DNA of 64,000 nucleotides, from NCBI GenBank assembly GCA_948567375.1, contig OX419756.1, positions 50,110,333-50,174,332 of the forward strand. The letters run 5' to 3'. Under the pieces are notes generated by a model, which worked only from the letters and a program-made list of their open reading frames with translations, did not search any database and was not told where the DNA came from. Both the position numbers and the translations under genes were made by a program. Origin of the DNA: Lunularia cruciata. Lineage: Eukaryota > Streptophyta > Marchantiopsida > Lunulariales > Lunulariaceae. Each line of letters opens with the position of its first letter. Positions within the stretch are counted from its first letter, which is position 1. Below, one piece after another: positions 9,638 to 63,022 of the stretch.

Positions 9638-10360
9638 TTCACTTTATAAGGTAATAATATTTTATTGTGTAGAAAAGCTTTTGAAAGAGCCTATGTAATA
9701 AGAAAGCTTGGTAATATTAAAATTTAGAGAGGATAATTCTGATGGATATTTGGATCAACTCTAAAAGTCATTAAGCTTATAGTTAATAGAGACTAGACAA
9801 TTTCTTCAAAGTATATTAAGACAAAATAAAATAGTATCCCAGGTGTACAATCTACTTGATAGATTTACCAATTATTACAAATCAGATGATGGTGTTGAGG
9901 ATCTTGATGGTGTTTTGTGGTTAATGATATTTTTCAAAATAATTTAATTTTTTCAAATCTACTACAAGGGATAAGATTTTGCAAATTTGATGCACAAAGT
10001 TTAGAAATGTGACGATTCCTTGCAAACATCAAATTATTTTGAATTAAACATTAAATTATTTTGAAAAATATCATTAACCACAAAACACCATCAAGATCCT
10101 CAACACCATCATCTGATTTGTAATAATTGGTAAATCTATCAAGTAGATTGTACACCTGGGATACTATTTTATTTTGTCTTAATATACTTTGAAGAAATTG
10201 TCTAGTCTCTATTAACTATAAGCTTAATGACTTTTAGAGTTGATCCAAATATCCATCAGAATTATCCTCTCTAAATTTTAATATTACCAAGCTTTCTTAT
10301 TACATAGGCTCTTTCAAAAGCTTTTCTACACAATAAAATATTATTACCTTATAAAGTGAA
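9638..10360. repeat. Long inverted repeat, two 311 bp arms, 101 bp spacer
   Basis: The left arm (9638-9948) is the reverse complement of the right arm (10050-10360). I followed the pairing across the arms and found no mismatch. The outer ends are TTCACTTTATAAGG and its complement, and the inner ends are AATAATTTAAT and ATTAAATTATT. The arms have no open frame of interest. Perfect identity implies a very recent inverted duplication, gene conversion, or an assembly or cloning artefact. If transcribed, it would form a 311 bp double-stranded RNA stem. It lies 8 bp from a second inverted repeat. Confidence 0.9.
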
Positions 10361-10368
10361 TAATTTAA

Positions 10369-10876
10369 TTTCTTCTATCTATGTGTCTCAATATATGTGA
10401 AGCTTATCGTTTAGAGCTTATGGTTACAATTTTACAAACTAAACATACAAATTTTACAATTTTATTTTTTTAAATCTTAAAAAAAACAACTATTGTATGT
10501 ACTAAGGACCAAGAACTAACAATATAATACAACATGATATTTGTAAAACTGTAACTATAAGTTGTAAATCGTTGACTTTTAATACAAAGGAAAATATGAT
10601 TCAATTTTTCCTTCAATTCAACACGATACTCACCTTCAATTCAACACGATACTTCCTTTGTATTAAAAGTCAACGATTTACAACTTATAGTTACAGTTTT
10701 ACAAATATCATGTTGTATTATATTGTTAGTTCTTGGTCCTTAGTACATACAATAGTTGTTTTTTTTAAGATTTAAAAAAATAAAATTGTAAAATTTGTAT
10801 GTTTAGTTTGTAAAACTGTAACCATAAGCTCTAAACGATAAGCTTCACATATATTGAGACACATAGATAGAAGAAA
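10369..10876. repeat. Second inverted repeat, 224 bp arms, 60 bp spacer
   Basis: The left arm 10369-10592 pairs with the right arm 10653-10876. I noticed a single mismatch (A versus G near 10431/10814) and no net length change. The spacer carries a 21 bp direct repeat, CCTTCAATTCAACACGATACT, at 10610-10630 and 10633-10653. No coding function is evident, and the short open frame crossing the loop is an effect of the symmetry. It is separated from the first inverted repeat only by TAATTTAA (10361-10368). Confidence 0.9.
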
Positions 10877-12972
10877 GAGAAAATTTTAAGTAAGCATAAG
10901 GAATGTATTTTGCAAGTAGTGATAAACATTTATAAATCTATTTTTTTAATTGCATATATAAAGCTTAATTTTCTATTTTTATTGGCCATTACATTCAGAA
11001 AATGTAGACAAAATTTATCAAGATGGAAGGCATATGGTTGATGTCTTGATCTTTATTGGATAGAAAGATTCTCATATACTTTCTAAAAAGCACCGTCTTT
11101 GTCAGAATTCTCTTTTGTTAGCATAAATATTTCCTCTAAACTCAGCCTTAGTAGAAGTGGGTTGGAGCTCCCGCTTTGGCTAAGCACCCCAAACTAATAC
11201 AAATTTTGCGACTCAAAAACAAAGTGAAAGCAATGAAACTTATAGAGAAATATCATTATTTCCATGATGTAATCAATTATCTTTAGAGTGGTAAGTGAAA
11301 TAATGTTAAGTCTTATATTCAAATTTAGTTACACATATGAGAGAATAAAATCCTGTATCATATTTATTCATTTATGATAATTTATTATTTTAGTTCTATT
11401 TTAGTTTTAGTTCTAAATAGGATTCTTCCATAAATTCAAAGTTAGATATTTGCTAACGTAACACTTTATATGGTATGTAAATCAAACGTTTAGTTTTAGA
11501 TAGCTCAATAATCCATTATATAGTTCCAAACCAAAAGTAGATGAGTACATCAAATGATTAGTTTAAGATAGCTGAACAAAGACATTATATAGTTCAAAAT
11601 CAACTTTATATACTGATAGAAACATGGATATTCAATTGTATTGGAAATTATTCTTTGGTTCTAAGAAGAGAGAGTTCATTGGGAGAGTTTATTTCCAATT
11701 AATATAAGATGTTGAAATTTGATTTTTCTTTCAAAAAATATGATGAGGCTGAAAATGTGTTTACCTATCAAGGAATATTGATGTTGGTAAAAGATATATT
11801 CATATTTTTGGAGAGAGGTAATAACTTTATTTTGTGACTTTAATGAATACGTCTATTAATTTGGTAAGTGTGAAAAAGTGATCAGATGGAGAGTTCATTT
11901 TAAATCACTAAGATCGTGGGACTCATGATACTAATCTGAATTATTCACTTACTCAATTGCTCTCTCTCTTGTTTCAGTGAATAGCAAAAACAGTGCAGTT
12001 TAAGTATTGGCTCGGGAGCAGCTGTAAATACTATCAAATTTAGCACAATAATCTATACGGAGATTTCAATTAGGACAGTTCATCGTGATGTTGTCCCAGC
12101 GATATGAATAGTCTCTCTCCGGGCTCGTTCCCATGTCGTTGTGCTTTCTTATTTTCTATCCGACTCTTCTAAATTATTTTATTTCTCTTCTTCGTTTTTT
12201 CAAAATATATAATTAATATCATAGAATCAAAACAAGCTATTGCAGAAATCCATGCCAAAACTTCAGCTTTAAGGAAGAAGTTCAAAAATATATTTATTCA
12301 AATTCAGTGGAGTACAAATGAGTACAAATGGATGGTTATACAACGATGGTCCTAAGTTAGCAAAATTCCTTGTTGGGTACGTCCGACCCGCACGAAAGGT
12401 ATAATGATCTAAGCACTTTCACGGAGACACTCGGTGAAATAAGCTTAAATCTATGGAAATATATTTTCTTTTCAAAATATATATTGATCCCTTTTGGAGA
12501 ATTTTCAATAACTAAGTACCATTTAGATCAAATAAATCTCCACTTTTGGGTTTGTGAGGTTACGTTACCTTTAATACCGGTACTTGGAGATATGAGAAAG
12601 CGAATGGATATCAGAGTACCTTCGATGACTTCGATCATCATCATCATCGATAGCTCATCCGACAATATAACTAAAAGCAATCCTCCTATAGACAAGTCCT
12701 TTTTCTTGCCAACATCCTCCAATAAATAAGTGGTCTTCTTAGCCAGCTTGTTCCTTGGAGAGTGCATGTGAACTTTAATGATGATTGGAGTGTTTTGTTG
12801 TTCGACAGGGAAAAGAAGAATCAGGCAAGATGATTAAAAGATATCAGATATCAGATTTGATATTGATGATTGGTAGACTATCTCATCAAGACATTCATCC
12901 ACTGATCTGAAACATGATTTTGAGGGGCTTGGGTTGGAAAGTATTTTCTCAGAAAACGTTATAATGTTCAAT
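10877..12972. other. AT-rich spacer, no supported gene
   Basis: The longest open frame (12370-12729, + strand, 119 codons) has no recognisable domain and opens in unremarkable sequence. A small tandem duplication of GAGTACAAATG is seen near 12311-12330. Nothing else is evident. Confidence 0.4.

Positions 12973-14082: not shown

Positions 14083-14154
<72 letters not shown>
14083..14154. repeat. (TA)36 microsatellite
   Basis: Uninterrupted TA dinucleotides over 72 bp. It is likely to be length-variable and to extrude as a cruciform. Confidence 0.95.
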
Positions 14155-34220: not shown

Positions 34221-36068
34221 CTCAAATCCTCGTTCCTCTACCTCCTCTACCTACTTCAGCAACAGTATCGAACACAATTGGTACCACCAGCAGCTGAAAA
34301 AATCTGCGCAAATCTGATACCACAAAACTTCTCTAAACAAAAATTCGAGTGCACTAAGAATTCTGTCGATTCTCCGCTCCGAAAAGTTTCCTCCACACTC
34401 TCTGCTCTCTTTTCGTCCCCTAACTCACTTGCTGCAGTTGAAGTTCAAGAGTGAGGGGAGGGGTTTAGGGTTCTTGGACGGAACCGAAGATCCCGTCCCG
34501 CTCCCGTACATGTCAAGAAACGTCATGCACGAACTCCCGTGGGGCTTGCGGGGTCCACCACAACAAGCGTGTGATTGATCACCGACATCTCCCGTGGACT
34601 CTTGGAGGTCCCGCACGCACGGGGACTGGCGCTGGTTCTCTCCCTTCTCTGCTCTTTGTGGTTGGAGCTGCTGCTACTGATGACGATTCAATTCTTCGTC
34701 CTTTTCCTTCCGCAAGTGCAGTGAGGGAATGCGGGGATTTTTAAGTCCCAATTGTTCGAAAACTTCACCTTACACCGAACAACGAAAGGGAGCTGTCCCA
34801 CTGCTGTGTCGAGGTTTCAGTTCCTCCCGGGAGAAGAAGTTGAGTAGCACGAAGGACTATGTGACGACGACACAGCGGAATTTTGGCTGCATCCCAAACG
34901 AGGGGGGAAGGGGAGACTACAACCAGTGAAGATAAAGAAACTAACGAAGGAAAATGGATTGGTGATGAATTCTGATGGAGGTCGCTTACATTGCGGTGGA
35001 TGCATGAGAAGTGAGAGGATTTTGTGATGATTTTTAGTTCTCTTTAACAGCTGAGAATTTGAAGCGAGTGCTGGTTGACCTTCTTCGACTCCTTGTACGA
35101 ATGCGTTGGTTGATGCATATGCCGCTTGGAGGAGTGAGAGAAGGGTGTCATTAATTGTGATCGGAGGTTCTGGTGTGTGATTACTTCTTAGGGCCGGAAT
35201 TTTGCAGGTCTTTTTCGCTTATTACCAGGGAAGGTCAGTCACGACCTCCACGATTATTTGGCTCTACCAAGATTTGCAAGTGCATTCTCGTTCTTCTATC
35301 GAGCTTAAGTTGAAGGTCTCTGATTCAATTCTTATTGGAATACTTGAGGGAGATGAAATTAGAAAAATGTAAGTGGTACGCGAGAGGTATATGGTAATGC
35401 CCGAATTGTGAGAGACATAATATATTTTAAGACGGTTATTGAAGAGAAAGCGCGAAGGGGTCACGAAACAGTATAAAGTAAAATCTCACCAGGTCTATAA
35501 TCTGTAGGAGTTCGTACTCAAGGCACCTATCAAAAGCTACAGACACTCCTTGGTCTTTCTGTTCCCTTTTTACTAAGCGATAACTTCTTTTGTAGACTGA
35601 AGGATCTCAGGTCCTGCTTGTTATCCTTACTTTACACATCGCTGCATAGCTGAAGGTGCCACGTCCGTTGAAAGATCCCAGTTTGAGTGACATCCCTGCA
35701 CATCTGCATTTTTGTCAGCTTTTAGGAATGAAATTTTGATTGCATCACTAAATTCACTTCATCTGTAGAGCACTATGAGGGTCCAATTCTTAATGATTGC
35801 TGCATTCTGTCCTAAGGAGTTCGAAGCGAGCAAAACCTTTCCCAAGTTCAGTCACCCTTGATTGCTGATGCTGGAATCCTTGTTTCCCGCAGGCATTATC
35901 TGTGGTTCGTGCTGGTTGAAGTTCGAACCCTATGCACCTCTTTGCACTTTATCAGTCGTCCGAACTGGGAGGTCATTAATGTAAAATTCCGGACTCTAAT
36001 TTAGACCAGGAGAAACGGACATTGGTTGATTCTTCGCATGTTCAAGAAAATTATTTTAGCCGGCCATA
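34221..36068. promoter_or_regulatory. Divergent intergenic/promoter region between FCF1 and the BEACH gene
   Basis: It holds no supported coding region. The first 600 bp are GC-richer and must include the FCF1 leader. The remainder supplies the promoter and leader of the BEACH gene. An in-frame TAG at 36057-36059 stands just before the BEACH start. No confident TATA box was placed on either strand. Confidence 0.5.
34464..34472 (-). promoter_or_regulatory. Telo-box-like element upstream of FCF1
   Basis: TTTAGGGTT on the + strand is AACCCTAAA on the FCF1 strand, about 245 bp before its start codon. Telo-boxes are common upstream of plant ribosome-biogenesis and translation genes, so the site suits FCF1. 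No accompanying site II (TGGGCY) was found nearby. Confidence 0.4.
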
Positions 36069-46291
<10,223 letters not shown>

Positions 46292-48404: not shown

Positions 48405-48817
48405 GTTCATCTAGTTACTTTGATTAGTAGCTGTTCATGCCTAGCAATGTCACAAGCGTACTATCAAGAGAAGACAATTTATCTAACTTACTGGCTTGAC
48501 GATTTGAGTTGATTTTGAAGTATTCAGTTTTATTGAGACTGAAATAACTAAAAACAAACTAGAAGAACCCTTTGAATGTCCCCTCAAATCTCTGTATACG
48601 ATTTACAATGTTCATCTAGTCACTCTGCTTAGTAGCTGTTCCTGCCTAGCAATTTCAAAAGCGTACTCTCCTCAAGAGAAGGCAATCCATCTAACTTTCT
48701 GGCTTGACGATTTGAGTCAATATTGAGGTATTCAATTTTATTGAGACTCAAATAACTAAAAGCAAACTAGAAGAACCCTTTGAATGTCCCCTCGAATCTC
48801 TACATACGATTTACAAT
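48405..48817 (+). repeat. Tandem duplication, 205 bp units
   Basis: 48405-48609 and 48610-48817 lie head to tail. Each starts GTTCATCTAGT and ends TACGATTTACAAT, with high identity (TGGCTTGACGATTTGAGT, AACTAGAAGAACCCTTTGAA are conserved). It is non-coding and clearly younger than the intron repeat at 45020. Confidence 0.85.
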
Positions 48818-56100: not shown

Positions 56101-57909
56101 AATTTTCCCTTCTATTATAATTATTCTATAAAAGTTCTTTTGATTACTTTCTGGAATTTCTTGGAAAGATATTTGGTTCTTGGATTATTATAACGCTTCC
56201 CCATCCTTCATATCCTTGAGTGCAAGTTATACCAGACATACCTCCTTTGACAGGCAAGGCATCCCAAGCATAGAAGTTGCACCTCTTCCTCTATTTATTT
56301 ACATATATTATCACGTGATAAACAATGTTGATAGGTGGTAGAAAACTCTAAACTTTGACCGTGGAGAGTTCTGATAATAATATCATAATCTCTTTTTGTT
56401 TTTGAAAAATCTCTAGAAAATATAAAAGAACTGTTTATGTAGTTGTAATATAAGAAAAAGTGCATCAGCACTTTTATATACATCTCCATATTTATTTGTT
56501 CCATCCAACTTAGTATAAAAATAAAAAAAGTAGTAGATAGTATATTTCTGGAAATCTGAAAAGTTCTTACCTTTATTAAAAAATTTCTTAGATGATTGTA
56601 TTTCCAATCTTACAAAATATACAATGGTATTTTGAGGCAGATATACATTTAGGATTTTTCATAACTTCATGTCAGCAGTGGAAGTTTTATTTCTTATAAT
56701 GACTATAATTTTAGAACTAGTTTTTCCGTATAATTCCTCTAAATTTTTTTCATATTATGATTTATTTACTTACACCTAGATGAAAATAACTTGCACTTAC
56801 ATAAATCCATCATGGTTAAAAAAATTTCATCTAAAAAGGATTCTACAATATTCACAATTAGAAAAGTTTATAATGATTAAATATTAAGTTTAATTAAAAA
56901 TAGAGAAATGTTAAATAAACCTATAAATCTTCTAAAAAGCATATAAGAATAATTATGTTAATATTTTGTTGGCTTGATTTTGTAGACATGTTGTGCGTTG
57001 TGTCCTATCTCTATGTGGTAACAAAGACAACACTTCTTTAAAAAGCACCGTGTAGTTGGATTGATTTCAAATTTCTACGAGGCACTTTGTCAATTGATTC
57101 AATTTGCGATTCCTCTGATTATCCTTATATGTTGTTTTAGGAGATTTTATGTTCATTTAAAATTTCCCTAAAATTATGCATTATTATGGTTTTACAAAGT
57201 AGTCCACAAATATTGTTCATATCTCTTGTATTTAGTAACATTTAGTTATCTAAAATGCTTAATGCGTCTATGGGATTAAGAGTATTGCATGTTTTTGTAC
57301 ATACATGTGTCGATAGAATATGAAGTTAAGTAGAAATGCCTAGTAATACTGTTGTTTTCTTCCTTTGATACTTTAGTAGATAAATCATCTAGATTCTTCC
57401 TCTCTTGAAATGCTCAAAGGCATAATACCCTTTCAGTAATATATATATGTAAAAATAAAATTTATATCTAATGTCTATAATCTGATATTTTATTTTATTT
57501 CAACGTAAAATTCTTTGAATTTGGAGTCTATACAGGGCTCTGCACATCCCTTTATAGTTTCTCTTCATGTAATATGGTTCAAAACTTCTAGTACTAATAT
57601 TTTAAGCTTTGAGTTTTCTTAGCTTTGCATAAATTTACGTTATCTCCATTTAGATGTTGAATTCACTCTCCAAAAGTTAATCTAATTCTTATCAACCAAT
57701 TTACTGAAAGATATCTTGGATGTGATATGCAAAATGTCTATAATTCAGATAATATAAAATTTTCAGATAAGCTCAACAGGTACAATACAACTTCTTTGAG
57801 AAGTTACATATAAAGAGAATCAGCTCAAAAAGAAAATGATAAAATTACAAGGTCATATAAGCTTTTATTGTTCTAATCCACTAGAGTAGGTAGCCGATAC
57901 ATCTCTTAA
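56101..57909. other. AT-rich desert
   Basis: Nothing coding is recognisable. It has a high A+T content and stop-dense frames, like the left flank. Confidence 0.5.
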
Positions 57910-58135
57910 TCAAAATATTACACATTACACTTTGCAAAGATTTTTCATACCAATAAAAAGGTAAAGGGTAAAATGGGGCTAAGCCCCATTTTACCTTTTG
58001 TGTTTTATCCTACTACTCTTACTCAAAATATTACACATTACTCTTTGCAAAGATTTTTCATACCAATAAAAAGGTAAAGGGTAAAAGGTAAACTGGGGCT
58101 AAGCTCCATTTTACCTTTTGTGTTTTATCCTACTA
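57910..58135 (+). repeat. Tandem repeat (about 110 bp) containing a strong hairpin
   Basis: 57910-58016 and 58023-58135 are near-identical (TCAAAATATTACACATTAC ... TTTTATCCTACTAC). Each contains a hairpin. In the first copy GGTAAAATGGGGCT and AGCCCCATTTTACC (57967-57995) form a perfect 14 bp stem around one base. The second copy has an extra AAAGGTA block and an imperfect stem. The hairpin head is shared with 28572-28586. Confidence 0.8.
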
Positions 58136-58259
58136 CGGCTTGGCTTGATGGGGTCTTATATTACTTGATTGCACTTCTCTCTTCTCTCTTTCCAAGGATG
58201 GACTTAATAGTACCCAATTTTGGTCTTTCCACTTAAGAGCTGAAAAACTTTGCACCTGC

Positions 58260-61689: not shown

Positions 61690-62095
61690 TCAACCACTCC
61701 CTACTCCTAGACAACATTGGGAATAGGTCATCATGGATCTAGTTTGTGAATTGCCCAAGACCACCTCAAGGTTTGACTTCCATTGAAGACTTTGTAGACC
61801 GACTCAACAAAATGATTCATGTGTGTCCTAGACCAAGGATGTGATTGCTCCACAATTAGCTCAATTTTACTTGGCTATATTATTTTCTCACCATGACTTG
61901 TCTCAAGTGCACATCACCAATTGGAGCACTCAATTCATTAGTTTGTTTTGGAGAACACTCTTTGGTATGTTCAAAACCAAAGTTGCCATATCCATAACAT
62001 ACCAACCATAAACCAATGGACAAATAGAGTGGGCTAATCACACTATTGAAGACATGCTCTAGGGCTTAATCTTAGAGGAGAAAGAAAGGTGGAAT
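61690..62095 (+). pseudogene. Ty3/gypsy integrase remnant, + strand
   Basis: Recognisable pieces: VIMDLVCELPKTTSRFD, FVDRLNKMIHVCP, then across frame changes NWSTQF.S.FWRTLFGMF, and ANHTIEDML. These follow the S-MDFV-GLP, VVDRLTKMAHF, G-QF-S-FW and T-QTLEDMLR blocks of gypsy integrase. It faces opposite to the pol remnant at 60111-61530, so it comes from a different insertion or a rearranged one. It runs directly into the LTR at 62096. Confidence 0.7.
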
Positions 62096-62677
62096 TGGCT
62101 TGGTAATATTTAGAAAGATGTTATATATGACGGTCTAAGTAGATAAGATAGAGGTGCCACCAAAAGAGTACTTCCACTAATAGGGTAGGGACCCAAAACA
62201 CCATGAAAACTTTAGTCAGTTTTGGAGGCCTAAATGAATGAATTAGGTCTCAAAAAATGAAAAATCATCCCTTCAAAACAAAATATGTTTCCTCTTCTCT
62301 CCCTAATTTTCTAATCAAGAGCTTTCCAACAGTACTCAACCATCTGGTTTTAAGCTTTGTTTAAGTTTTGAGCTTTGTATAGAAAGATTTCCCAAAGATT
62401 TATTTTGGTCAAAACTTGTTTGACCAACTAGATAGGACAAAGATCTACATGTCACCAATACATGCAAATAATTTGAGCTAGGAGCTTGGTGACATGTCAC
62501 CAATCCATGTATGTGATCCAAGGGTGGAGCTCACTTTGAATGGATCCTCTTTGCTATATAATAAAGACAAGGTGCTCCTTTGGAGCATCAAAGTATTGAG
62601 TGATGAAGCCTTGTATTTCTTTTGTGCTTCTTTTCTTGTGTGTCTCTTGGGGGTTTTCTTGTCCTCAGAATATTATA
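62096..62677 (+). mobile_element. LTR, right copy (+ orientation)
   Basis: Homologous to 1404-1998 from GGTGGAATTGGCTTGGTAAT onward, including the TATA/AATAAAGACAAGGTGCTCCT block near 62558-62581 and the end TCAGAATATTATA. It lacks the first 60 bp or so present in the left copy and in the inverted copy. It follows integrase, so it is probably the 3' LTR of the + strand element. Confidence 0.75.
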
Positions 62678-63022
62678 GGTACCATTGGAAAGCTCTTGAC
62701 AAGACAAATAGGGGAGAGAAGGCAACATCTTTTCCCCTGAGGGAGGAAAAAGTATTGATCCTTCCTTGTTTGTCAAAAAATGGAATGAAAGAACTTGCTT
62801 GAAGGGGGGAGGGATCTTTCATTTTTTGAGACCAAATTCATCCATTTAGGCCTCTAAAGTTTTCATGGTATTTTTAGCCACTTCTCTATTAGTGGAAGTA
62901 CTATTTTGGTGACACCTCTATCTTATCTATTTAGACCATCATATATAACATCCTTCTAGGTATTACCAAGCCAATTTCCACCTCTAGATAATATGTCTAG
63001 CTAGTGGTATTACATTGGGCCA
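62678..63022 (-). mobile_element. Partial LTR, inverted, head-to-head with the previous LTR
   Basis: Reverse complement of the 5' half of the same LTR. GGTACCATTGGAAAGCTCTTG at its left is internal LTR sequence, and at its right GCTAGACATATTATCTAGAG mirrors 1433-1462. The far end (TTGGGCCA read on the + strand) corresponds to the TG start of the LTR. Another short piece of the same junction, GGTACCATTGGAAAGCT, is at 61553. Confidence 0.7.

What the first reader, a model, noticed from the sequence alone, without database searches (positions are those of the whole stretch)
9638..10876. Two long inverted repeats side by side, one apparently perfect
Arms of 311 bp with no mismatch found (9638-9948/10050-10360), then 8 bp later arms of 224 bp with one mismatch noticed (10369-10592/10653-10876). 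Perfect arms of this length in decayed AT-rich DNA point to very recent formation, ongoing gene conversion, or an artefact. If transcribed, they would be a ready source of long double-stranded RNA and small RNAs. The paired arrangement looks like a compound foldback element and is not explained by the LTR or MITE families in the window.
Basis: partly seen in the sequence, partly recalled or inferred. Interest (0 to 1): 0.75.

Follow-up and report, generated by a model that had tools for sequence, protein, structure and literature searches.

The report
Twin near-perfect DNA hairpins, probably young
A plant-type chromosome carries two long, almost flawless mirror-image repeats side by side; they look like the fresh scar of a DNA-copying accident at a single-copy spot, not a mobile element or a known small-RNA gene.

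Summary
Observation confirmed. IR1 has 311-bp arms with no mismatch (315 bp with one); IR2 has 224-bp arms with one mismatch, 8 bp away. The window lies in a 566-Mb photosynthetic-eukaryote assembly. The arms, both loops and the left flank were found nowhere else in it (the search skips very common words); the right flank is local apart from a short dispersed repeat. No target-site duplication in register and no Pfam match over cut-off. A mobile foldback or MITE family is not supported, nor a proto-microRNA copied from another gene.

Each loop carries a short tandem duplication (22- and 23-bp period) at its right-arm edge, and all four outer arm ends fold onto one 8-bp centre. I read this as one fold-back template-switching accident in place (inferred; confidence 0.55). 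The boldest reading not excluded is an opened "dogbone" of nascent strands, as in yeast ODIRA. No outgroup, reads or small-RNA data were available, so polarity, age, artefact and expression remain untested. A 180-kb sample (0.03% of the genome) held no comparable short-spaced repeat.

The parts
9638..9948 (+). IR1 left arm (311 bp perfect; to 9952 with one mismatch)
9949..10049 (.). IR1 loop, 101 nt
   Evidence: 9940-10060 has a single place in the assembly
10024..10065 (.). 22-bp-period tandem duplication straddling the loop/right-arm edge of IR1 (copies 10024-10045 and 10046-10065, one mismatch)
10050..10360 (-). IR1 right arm
10361..10368 (.). 8-bp centre TAATTTAA between IR1 and IR2
10369..10592 (+). 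IR2 left arm (224 bp)
10410..10568 (.). older imperfect inverted repeat nested in the IR2 left arm (29-nt ends, 86%), possible old MITE
   Evidence: half-to-half alignment reached by 3 of 1,000 shuffles
10593..10652 (.). IR2 loop, 60 nt
   Evidence: 10585-10665 has a single place in the assembly
10610..10653 (.). 23-bp-period tandem duplication (21 bp repeated exactly) ending at the right-arm edge of IR2 (copies 10610-10632 and 10633-10653)
10653..10876 (-). IR2 right arm (one mismatch, C at 10816 against A at 10429)

Best explanation
The 1,239-bp structure is the scar of one recent, local DNA-synthesis accident. A nascent or repair strand copied about 300 and 220 nt of unique intergenic DNA, ran on into the loop, slipped back 22-23 nt (the tandem duplication), folded back onto its own arm and copied it in reverse; this happened twice from a shared 8-bp centre, and the product was sealed into the chromosome. 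It was made in place, not brought in by transposition. Its present effect is probably limited to a strong DNA hairpin or cruciform and, if transcribed, a long near-perfect double-stranded RNA that could feed only its own silencing. Shown: arms, loops, tandem duplications, 8-bp centre, no other place in the assembly search, no target-site duplication in register. Inferred: the single event, the order of switches, the enzymes, the recent age and the weak function.
For: Near-perfect arms with edges that stop abruptly: position-by-position identity just outside and just inside the arms is 13/40, 13/40, 9/40 and 8/30. Arms, both loops and left flank have no place elsewhere in the 566-Mb assembly, so the copied sequence is local; the same search did find 83-89% copies of a short repeat in the right flank, so it is not blind to diverged copies. 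Both loops hold a tandem duplication at the right-arm edge. Chance of one in each loop, all figures post hoc: about 6e-6 with the strictest definition (6 others in 244 kb), 3e-5 with another (one search counts, microsatellites included), 2e-4 with Tandem Repeats Finder's looser list (8 other two-copy arrays of period 15-31 in the window). No other short-spaced near-perfect inverted repeat in 244 kb makes two independent events 8 bp apart improbable. Foldback priming with large loops (median 36 nt in strains with intact MRE11 and SAE2), and two cases with sequential hairpins (both in sae2-defective strains), are documented in yeast (PMC7467729, passages).
Against: No ancestor, outgroup or second haplotype was available, so which arms are original and whether it was one event are untested. 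The IR1 outer flanks share slightly more than shuffles (9 of 500 as good), so that edge is not perfectly clean. Interstitial fold-back copying of 224-311 nt is longer than the template-switch patterns in the paper I consulted (largest up to 59 bp, in ribosomal RNA genes; PMC8794818, passages). IR2 shows no special complementarity between loop and inner arm (6 nt; 2,916 of 5,000 shuffles as good), so a possible priming site is seen only for IR1. The genome search skips very common words, so absence of copies is not absolute.
Confidence: 0.55

Rival explanations
1. Two successive events: one inverted repeat formed first, its hairpin made the site fragile, and repair of a break at its base produced the second. 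The tandem duplications are end-joining scars of staggered breaks in the extruded loops.
For: Short tandem duplications are a documented product of fill-in and end-joining at breaks with complementary overhangs (PMC8355091, passages). In IR1 the second copy overlaps the arm by 16 nt, so duplicating an existing arm edge explains the 13-nt complementarity between loop and arm, which chance rarely gives (2 of 5,000 shuffles, 0 of 276 comparable places in the window). The repeated stretch is shorter than the period in both (20 of 22, 21 of 23), so neither junction shows microhomology (read).
Against: Needs two rare events within 8 bp plus two loop breaks. The two IR1 copies differ by a C/T although 311 arm positions do not differ at all.
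Confidence: 0.2
2. Old inverted repeats kept identical by gene conversion or hairpin-templated repair, so near-perfect arms do not mean young arms.
For: Template switching is proposed both to create and to maintain hairpins (PMC8794818, passages). An older, decayed inverted repeat is nested inside the IR2 arm. The IR1 outer flanks are slightly more alike than shuffles (9 of 500).
Against: Homogenised old arms should fade gradually at their edges (expectation, not tested); here position-by-position identity falls at once to about background.
Confidence: 0.1
3. Assembly or library artefact (fold-back chimera).
For: Reads were not available to exclude it.
Against: Library fold-backs normally give near-zero spacers and no unrelated far flank (recalled); here loops are 101 and 60 nt, both loops hold internal duplications, the IR2 arms differ at one base, and both outer flanks have their full-length match only here in the assembly.
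Confidence: 0.08
4. A mobile foldback element or pair of MITE-like elements.
For: Long terminal inverted repeats and an internal MITE-like repeat in the IR2 arm.
Against: No other place for either arm; no target-site duplication in register for the whole element or either half; arms 1 and 2 unrelated.
Confidence: 0.04
5. A young hairpin-RNA or proto-microRNA locus under selection.
For: Both halves would fold into very stable RNA hairpins (-520 and -339 kcal/mol) and the genome has Dicer-type exons.
Against: The arms match no other sequence in the genome search, so no gene source or trans target was found; no Rfam family in the window. Expression unknown.
Confidence: 0.04

Closest known systems
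Template-switch mutation hairpins (PMC8794818, passages seen)
   Same: Adjacent sequence copied in reverse to give a perfect stem in one step.
   Different: Stems here are 224-311 bp (largest pattern reported there up to 59 bp), come as a pair, and carry a tandem duplication at each loop; no ancestor to compare.
Foldback inversions in budding yeast (PMC7467729 and PMC10622511, passages seen, some from the abstracts)
   Same: Single-strand fold-back priming; large loops when Mre11/Sae2 are intact; occasional sequential hairpins.
   Different: The model there extends to the chromosome end and gives dicentrics; here the inverted copies are short and interstitial.
ODIRA dogbone (PMC10766183, passages and section 20 seen)
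   Same: Divergent strands from one centre, each switching back through a loop; preferred repeat spacing 40-80 bp against loops of 101 and 60 nt (79 and 37 if the duplications are subtracted).
   Different: ODIRA amplifies a gene with its origin and leaves inverted triplications; here the stem is about 0.5 kb and there is no third copy.
Small tandem duplications at staggered breaks (PMC8355091, passages seen, some from the abstract)
   Same: Short duplications joined without evident microhomology.
   Different: Here both sit at hairpin loop edges.

Membership tests
Foldback transposon / MITE | several dispersed copies in the genome | tested here: not met
   Each arm found only within this element (the search skips very common words)
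Foldback transposon / MITE | target-site duplication at the outer ends | tested here: not met
   No direct repeat abutting both ends beyond 1 nt for the whole element, IR1 or IR2. Out of register: GAGAA lies 4 nt from the left end and abuts the right end; TTTAA abuts IR2 on the left and lies 8 nt beyond it on the right
De novo template-switch hairpin | second arm is a near-identical inverted copy of the adjacent first arm, edges abrupt | tested here: inconclusive
   Near-perfect arms and abrupt edges, but IR1 outer flanks slightly above shuffles (9 of 500)
De novo template-switch hairpin | ancestral sequence lacks one arm | not testable with these tools
   No relatives held; left flank has a single place in the assembly
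ODIRA dogbone | short pre-existing interrupted inverted repeat (2-14 bp, spacing 40-80 bp preferred) at each switch | tested here: inconclusive
   IR1 loop has a 13-nt complement to its arm edge, IR2 only 6 nt; loops 101 and 60 nt; pre-existing state unknown
ODIRA dogbone | inverted triplication product | tested here: not met
   Two adjacent inverted duplications, no third copy of either arm
ODIRA dogbone | replication origin inside the amplified segment | not testable with these tools
   No replication data
Inverted-duplication microRNA gene | arms derive from a gene elsewhere in the genome | tested here: not met
   No other genomic place for either arm (the search skips very common words)
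Hairpin-derived siRNA locus | 21-24 nt small RNAs from the arms | not testable with these tools
   No RNA data; genome has Dicer_dimer matches

The most novel reading that the evidence does not exclude
The element is an opened DNA dogbone: two divergent nascent strands that began 8 bp apart at one initiation site each slipped back 22-23 nt, snapped back on themselves and copied themselves to their own 5' ends. That produced two full-length hairpins which were joined across the 8-bp centre and sealed into a plant-type chromosome. This one event would explain why all four outer arm ends map to the same centre and why both loop duplications lie on the 3' side of their loop. It would be a natural, sub-kilobase, interstitial relative of yeast ODIRA, a way for eukaryotes to make paired long perfect hairpins at once.
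Probability: 0.2. Interest if true: 0.6.

Novelty: new variant of a known kind. Interest (0 to 1): 0.4.

Why it matters
Long perfect hairpins are unstable and, if transcribed, give double-stranded RNA; how they arise in natural chromosomes is hard to read from decayed examples. A near-perfect pair with visible junction scars would let the order of switches be tested by finding the empty allele in a relative, and would show whether fold-back synthesis of hundreds of bases can end within a chromosome instead of at its tip.

Tried and rejected
Rejected: mobile element (no other place for the arms, no target-site duplication in register); origin from the window's repeat family at 1409-1972, 62093-62625 and 62813-63017 (12 comparisons, none better than its best of 20 shuffles, one tie); known protein fragment. 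For the last, 21 stop-to-stop frames were scanned with Pfam: 5 long frames of the window (one PH_FAN hit far from the element), 10 of the 23 frames of 70 aa or more in the first 18 kb (one sub-cutoff hit at E 0.072) and 6 of the 12 frames of 35 aa or more that overlap the element (one sub-cutoff hit, DUF7951, E 0.065, in 10506-10772; two of the 12 are the same arm-1 frame on the two strands). RNA families and tRNAs: none. Viral source: two exact patterns, 0 hits, which says little about diverged relatives. The sigma-70 promoter scan found nothing beyond shuffles and does not apply to a eukaryote. Self-comparison at low identity listed many AT-rich self-palindromes, which I treat as noise without a test, and a few diverged short-spaced inverted repeats. 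Literature: searches; PMC11226609 (passages) held no parallel. I do not claim that none is in print.

Rows dropped: loci that overlap the element or its flank were left out (L001-L005 throughout, L018 where already fetched). One search returned 12 of 20 stretches asked for, because 8 did not exist.

Full report
The sequence and two scans give arms at 9638-9948/10050-10360 and 10369-10592/10653-10876. There is no mismatch over 311 bp in IR1, one if it is extended to 315 bp, and one mismatch over 224 bp in IR2. The spacers are 101 and 60 nt and the two repeats are 8 bp apart. As RNA both halves fold almost completely (-520 kcal/mol, 0 of 20 shuffles as stable, -339 kcal/mol, 0 of 100), and as one DNA strand the whole element is predicted to make two hairpins.

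The window lies in an assembly of 565.8 Mb in 74 contigs. It has light-harvesting genes (37 matches) and three Dicer-dimerisation matches, so it is a photosynthetic eukaryote with RNA-silencing genes; I think a land plant, perhaps a bryophyte, but that is inference. The element sits in an AT-rich stretch (0.25-0.35 GC) before a step near 18 kb to 0.40-0.51. Of 10 frames tested among the 23 of 70 aa or more in the first 18 kb, and 6 tested among the 12 of 35 aa or more that overlap the element, none has a Pfam match over its cut-off.

It is local. Arm 1 matches only its own two copies, arm 2 only its own two copies plus a 29-nt match inside the arm, and loop 1, loop 2 and the left flank one place each. 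The right flank has one full match and three partial ones of 83-89% to a short repeat at about 11160-11250, which shows that diverged copies can be found. The search skips very common words, so this is strong but not absolute. The ends show no target-site duplication in register; short out-of-register matches (GAGAA, TTTAA) exist. Arms 1 and 2 are not related. This argues against a mobile element and against arms copied from a gene elsewhere.

Two features point to how it was made. First, each loop carries a tandem duplication at the edge of its right arm: 22-bp period with one mismatch at 10024-10065, and 21 bp repeated exactly at a 23-bp period at 10610-10653. By the strictest definition there are six others in 244 kb (one in the rest of the window, five in 180 kb), giving about 6e-6 for one in each loop. 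Looser definitions give about 3e-5 and 2e-4 (from the counts). All are post hoc. Second, the outer ends of both repeats converge on one 8-bp centre: the copying that made the second arm of each repeat stopped within 8 bp of the same point. For a serial process in arms of 224-311 bp this is a few per cent by chance (my estimate), so it is suggestive only.

The best reading is a single recent fold-back template-switching event. Near-perfect arms with abrupt edges suggest youth; one mismatch in 535 pairs would be about 0.13 million years at an assumed 7e-9 per site per year, with a range of roughly 3,000 to 740,000 years from counting error alone (the rate is recalled and may not suit an unnamed species). 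Against it: the IR1 outer flanks are slightly more alike than shuffles (9 of 500), and only IR1 has a good internal complement (13 nt, 2 of 5,000 shuffles; IR2 6 nt, 2,916 of 5,000). The IR1 complement can also be explained if the tandem copy was made from the arm after the hairpin existed, which is the main rival.

What it resembles. Template-switch hairpins (PMC8794818, passages), foldback inversions with large loops and, in two sae2-defective strains, sequential hairpins in yeast (PMC7467729, passages; PMC10622511, passages), tandem duplications at staggered breaks (PMC8355091, passages), and ODIRA, where divergent nascent strands switch at short repeats, 40-80 bp apart by preference, and form a closed dogbone (PMC10766183, passages and section 20). 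A dogbone opened in one strand at its centre, with 8 nt lost there, would read exactly L1-loop1-R1-8bp-L2-loop2-R2, with both loop duplications on the 3' side of their loops, as here. That is my own deduction. The element fails ODIRA's product test (no triplication) and the origin test could not be made, so I do not file it there.

Frequency: none of 18 sampled stretches of 10 kb (three of them within 20 kb of the window) nor the rest of the window has another inverted repeat of at least 50 bp and 90% with a spacer under 700 nt; more diverged short-spaced ones occur (e.g. 56901-56953/57118-57170, 83%).

Verdict: a real (reads permitting), probably young, local double hairpin with informative junctions, most likely inert; a new variant of a known kind of rearrangement.

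Noticed in passing
10410-10438 / 10540-10568: Older imperfect inverted repeat (29 nt, 86%) nested in the IR2 left arm, with TCG on both sides: possibly a decayed MITE.
   Followed up: partly
11160-11250: Dispersed repeat with partial copies of 83-89% at three other places in the assembly.
   Followed up: no
14083-14154: Perfect (TA)36 array.
   Followed up: no
1409-1972, 62093-62625, 62813-63017: Diverged repeat family with direct and inverted members at the two ends of the window.
   Followed up: partly
48405-48817 and 57903-58136: Two-copy tandem duplications of about 208 and 113 bp.
   Followed up: no
36060-36587: Exon with a FAN-type PH domain (PF25400); probably part of a BEACH/WD40 gene (recalled).
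   Followed up: no
about 18000: Sharp step in GC from 0.25-0.35 to 0.40-0.51.
   Followed up: no
L023:3514-9998: Large inverted pair of about 2.75 kb, 92% identical, spacer about 1 kb.
   Followed up: no
56901-56953 / 57118-57170: Diverged short-spaced inverted repeat (54 nt, 83%, spacer 164 nt), possibly an older case of the same kind.
   Followed up: no
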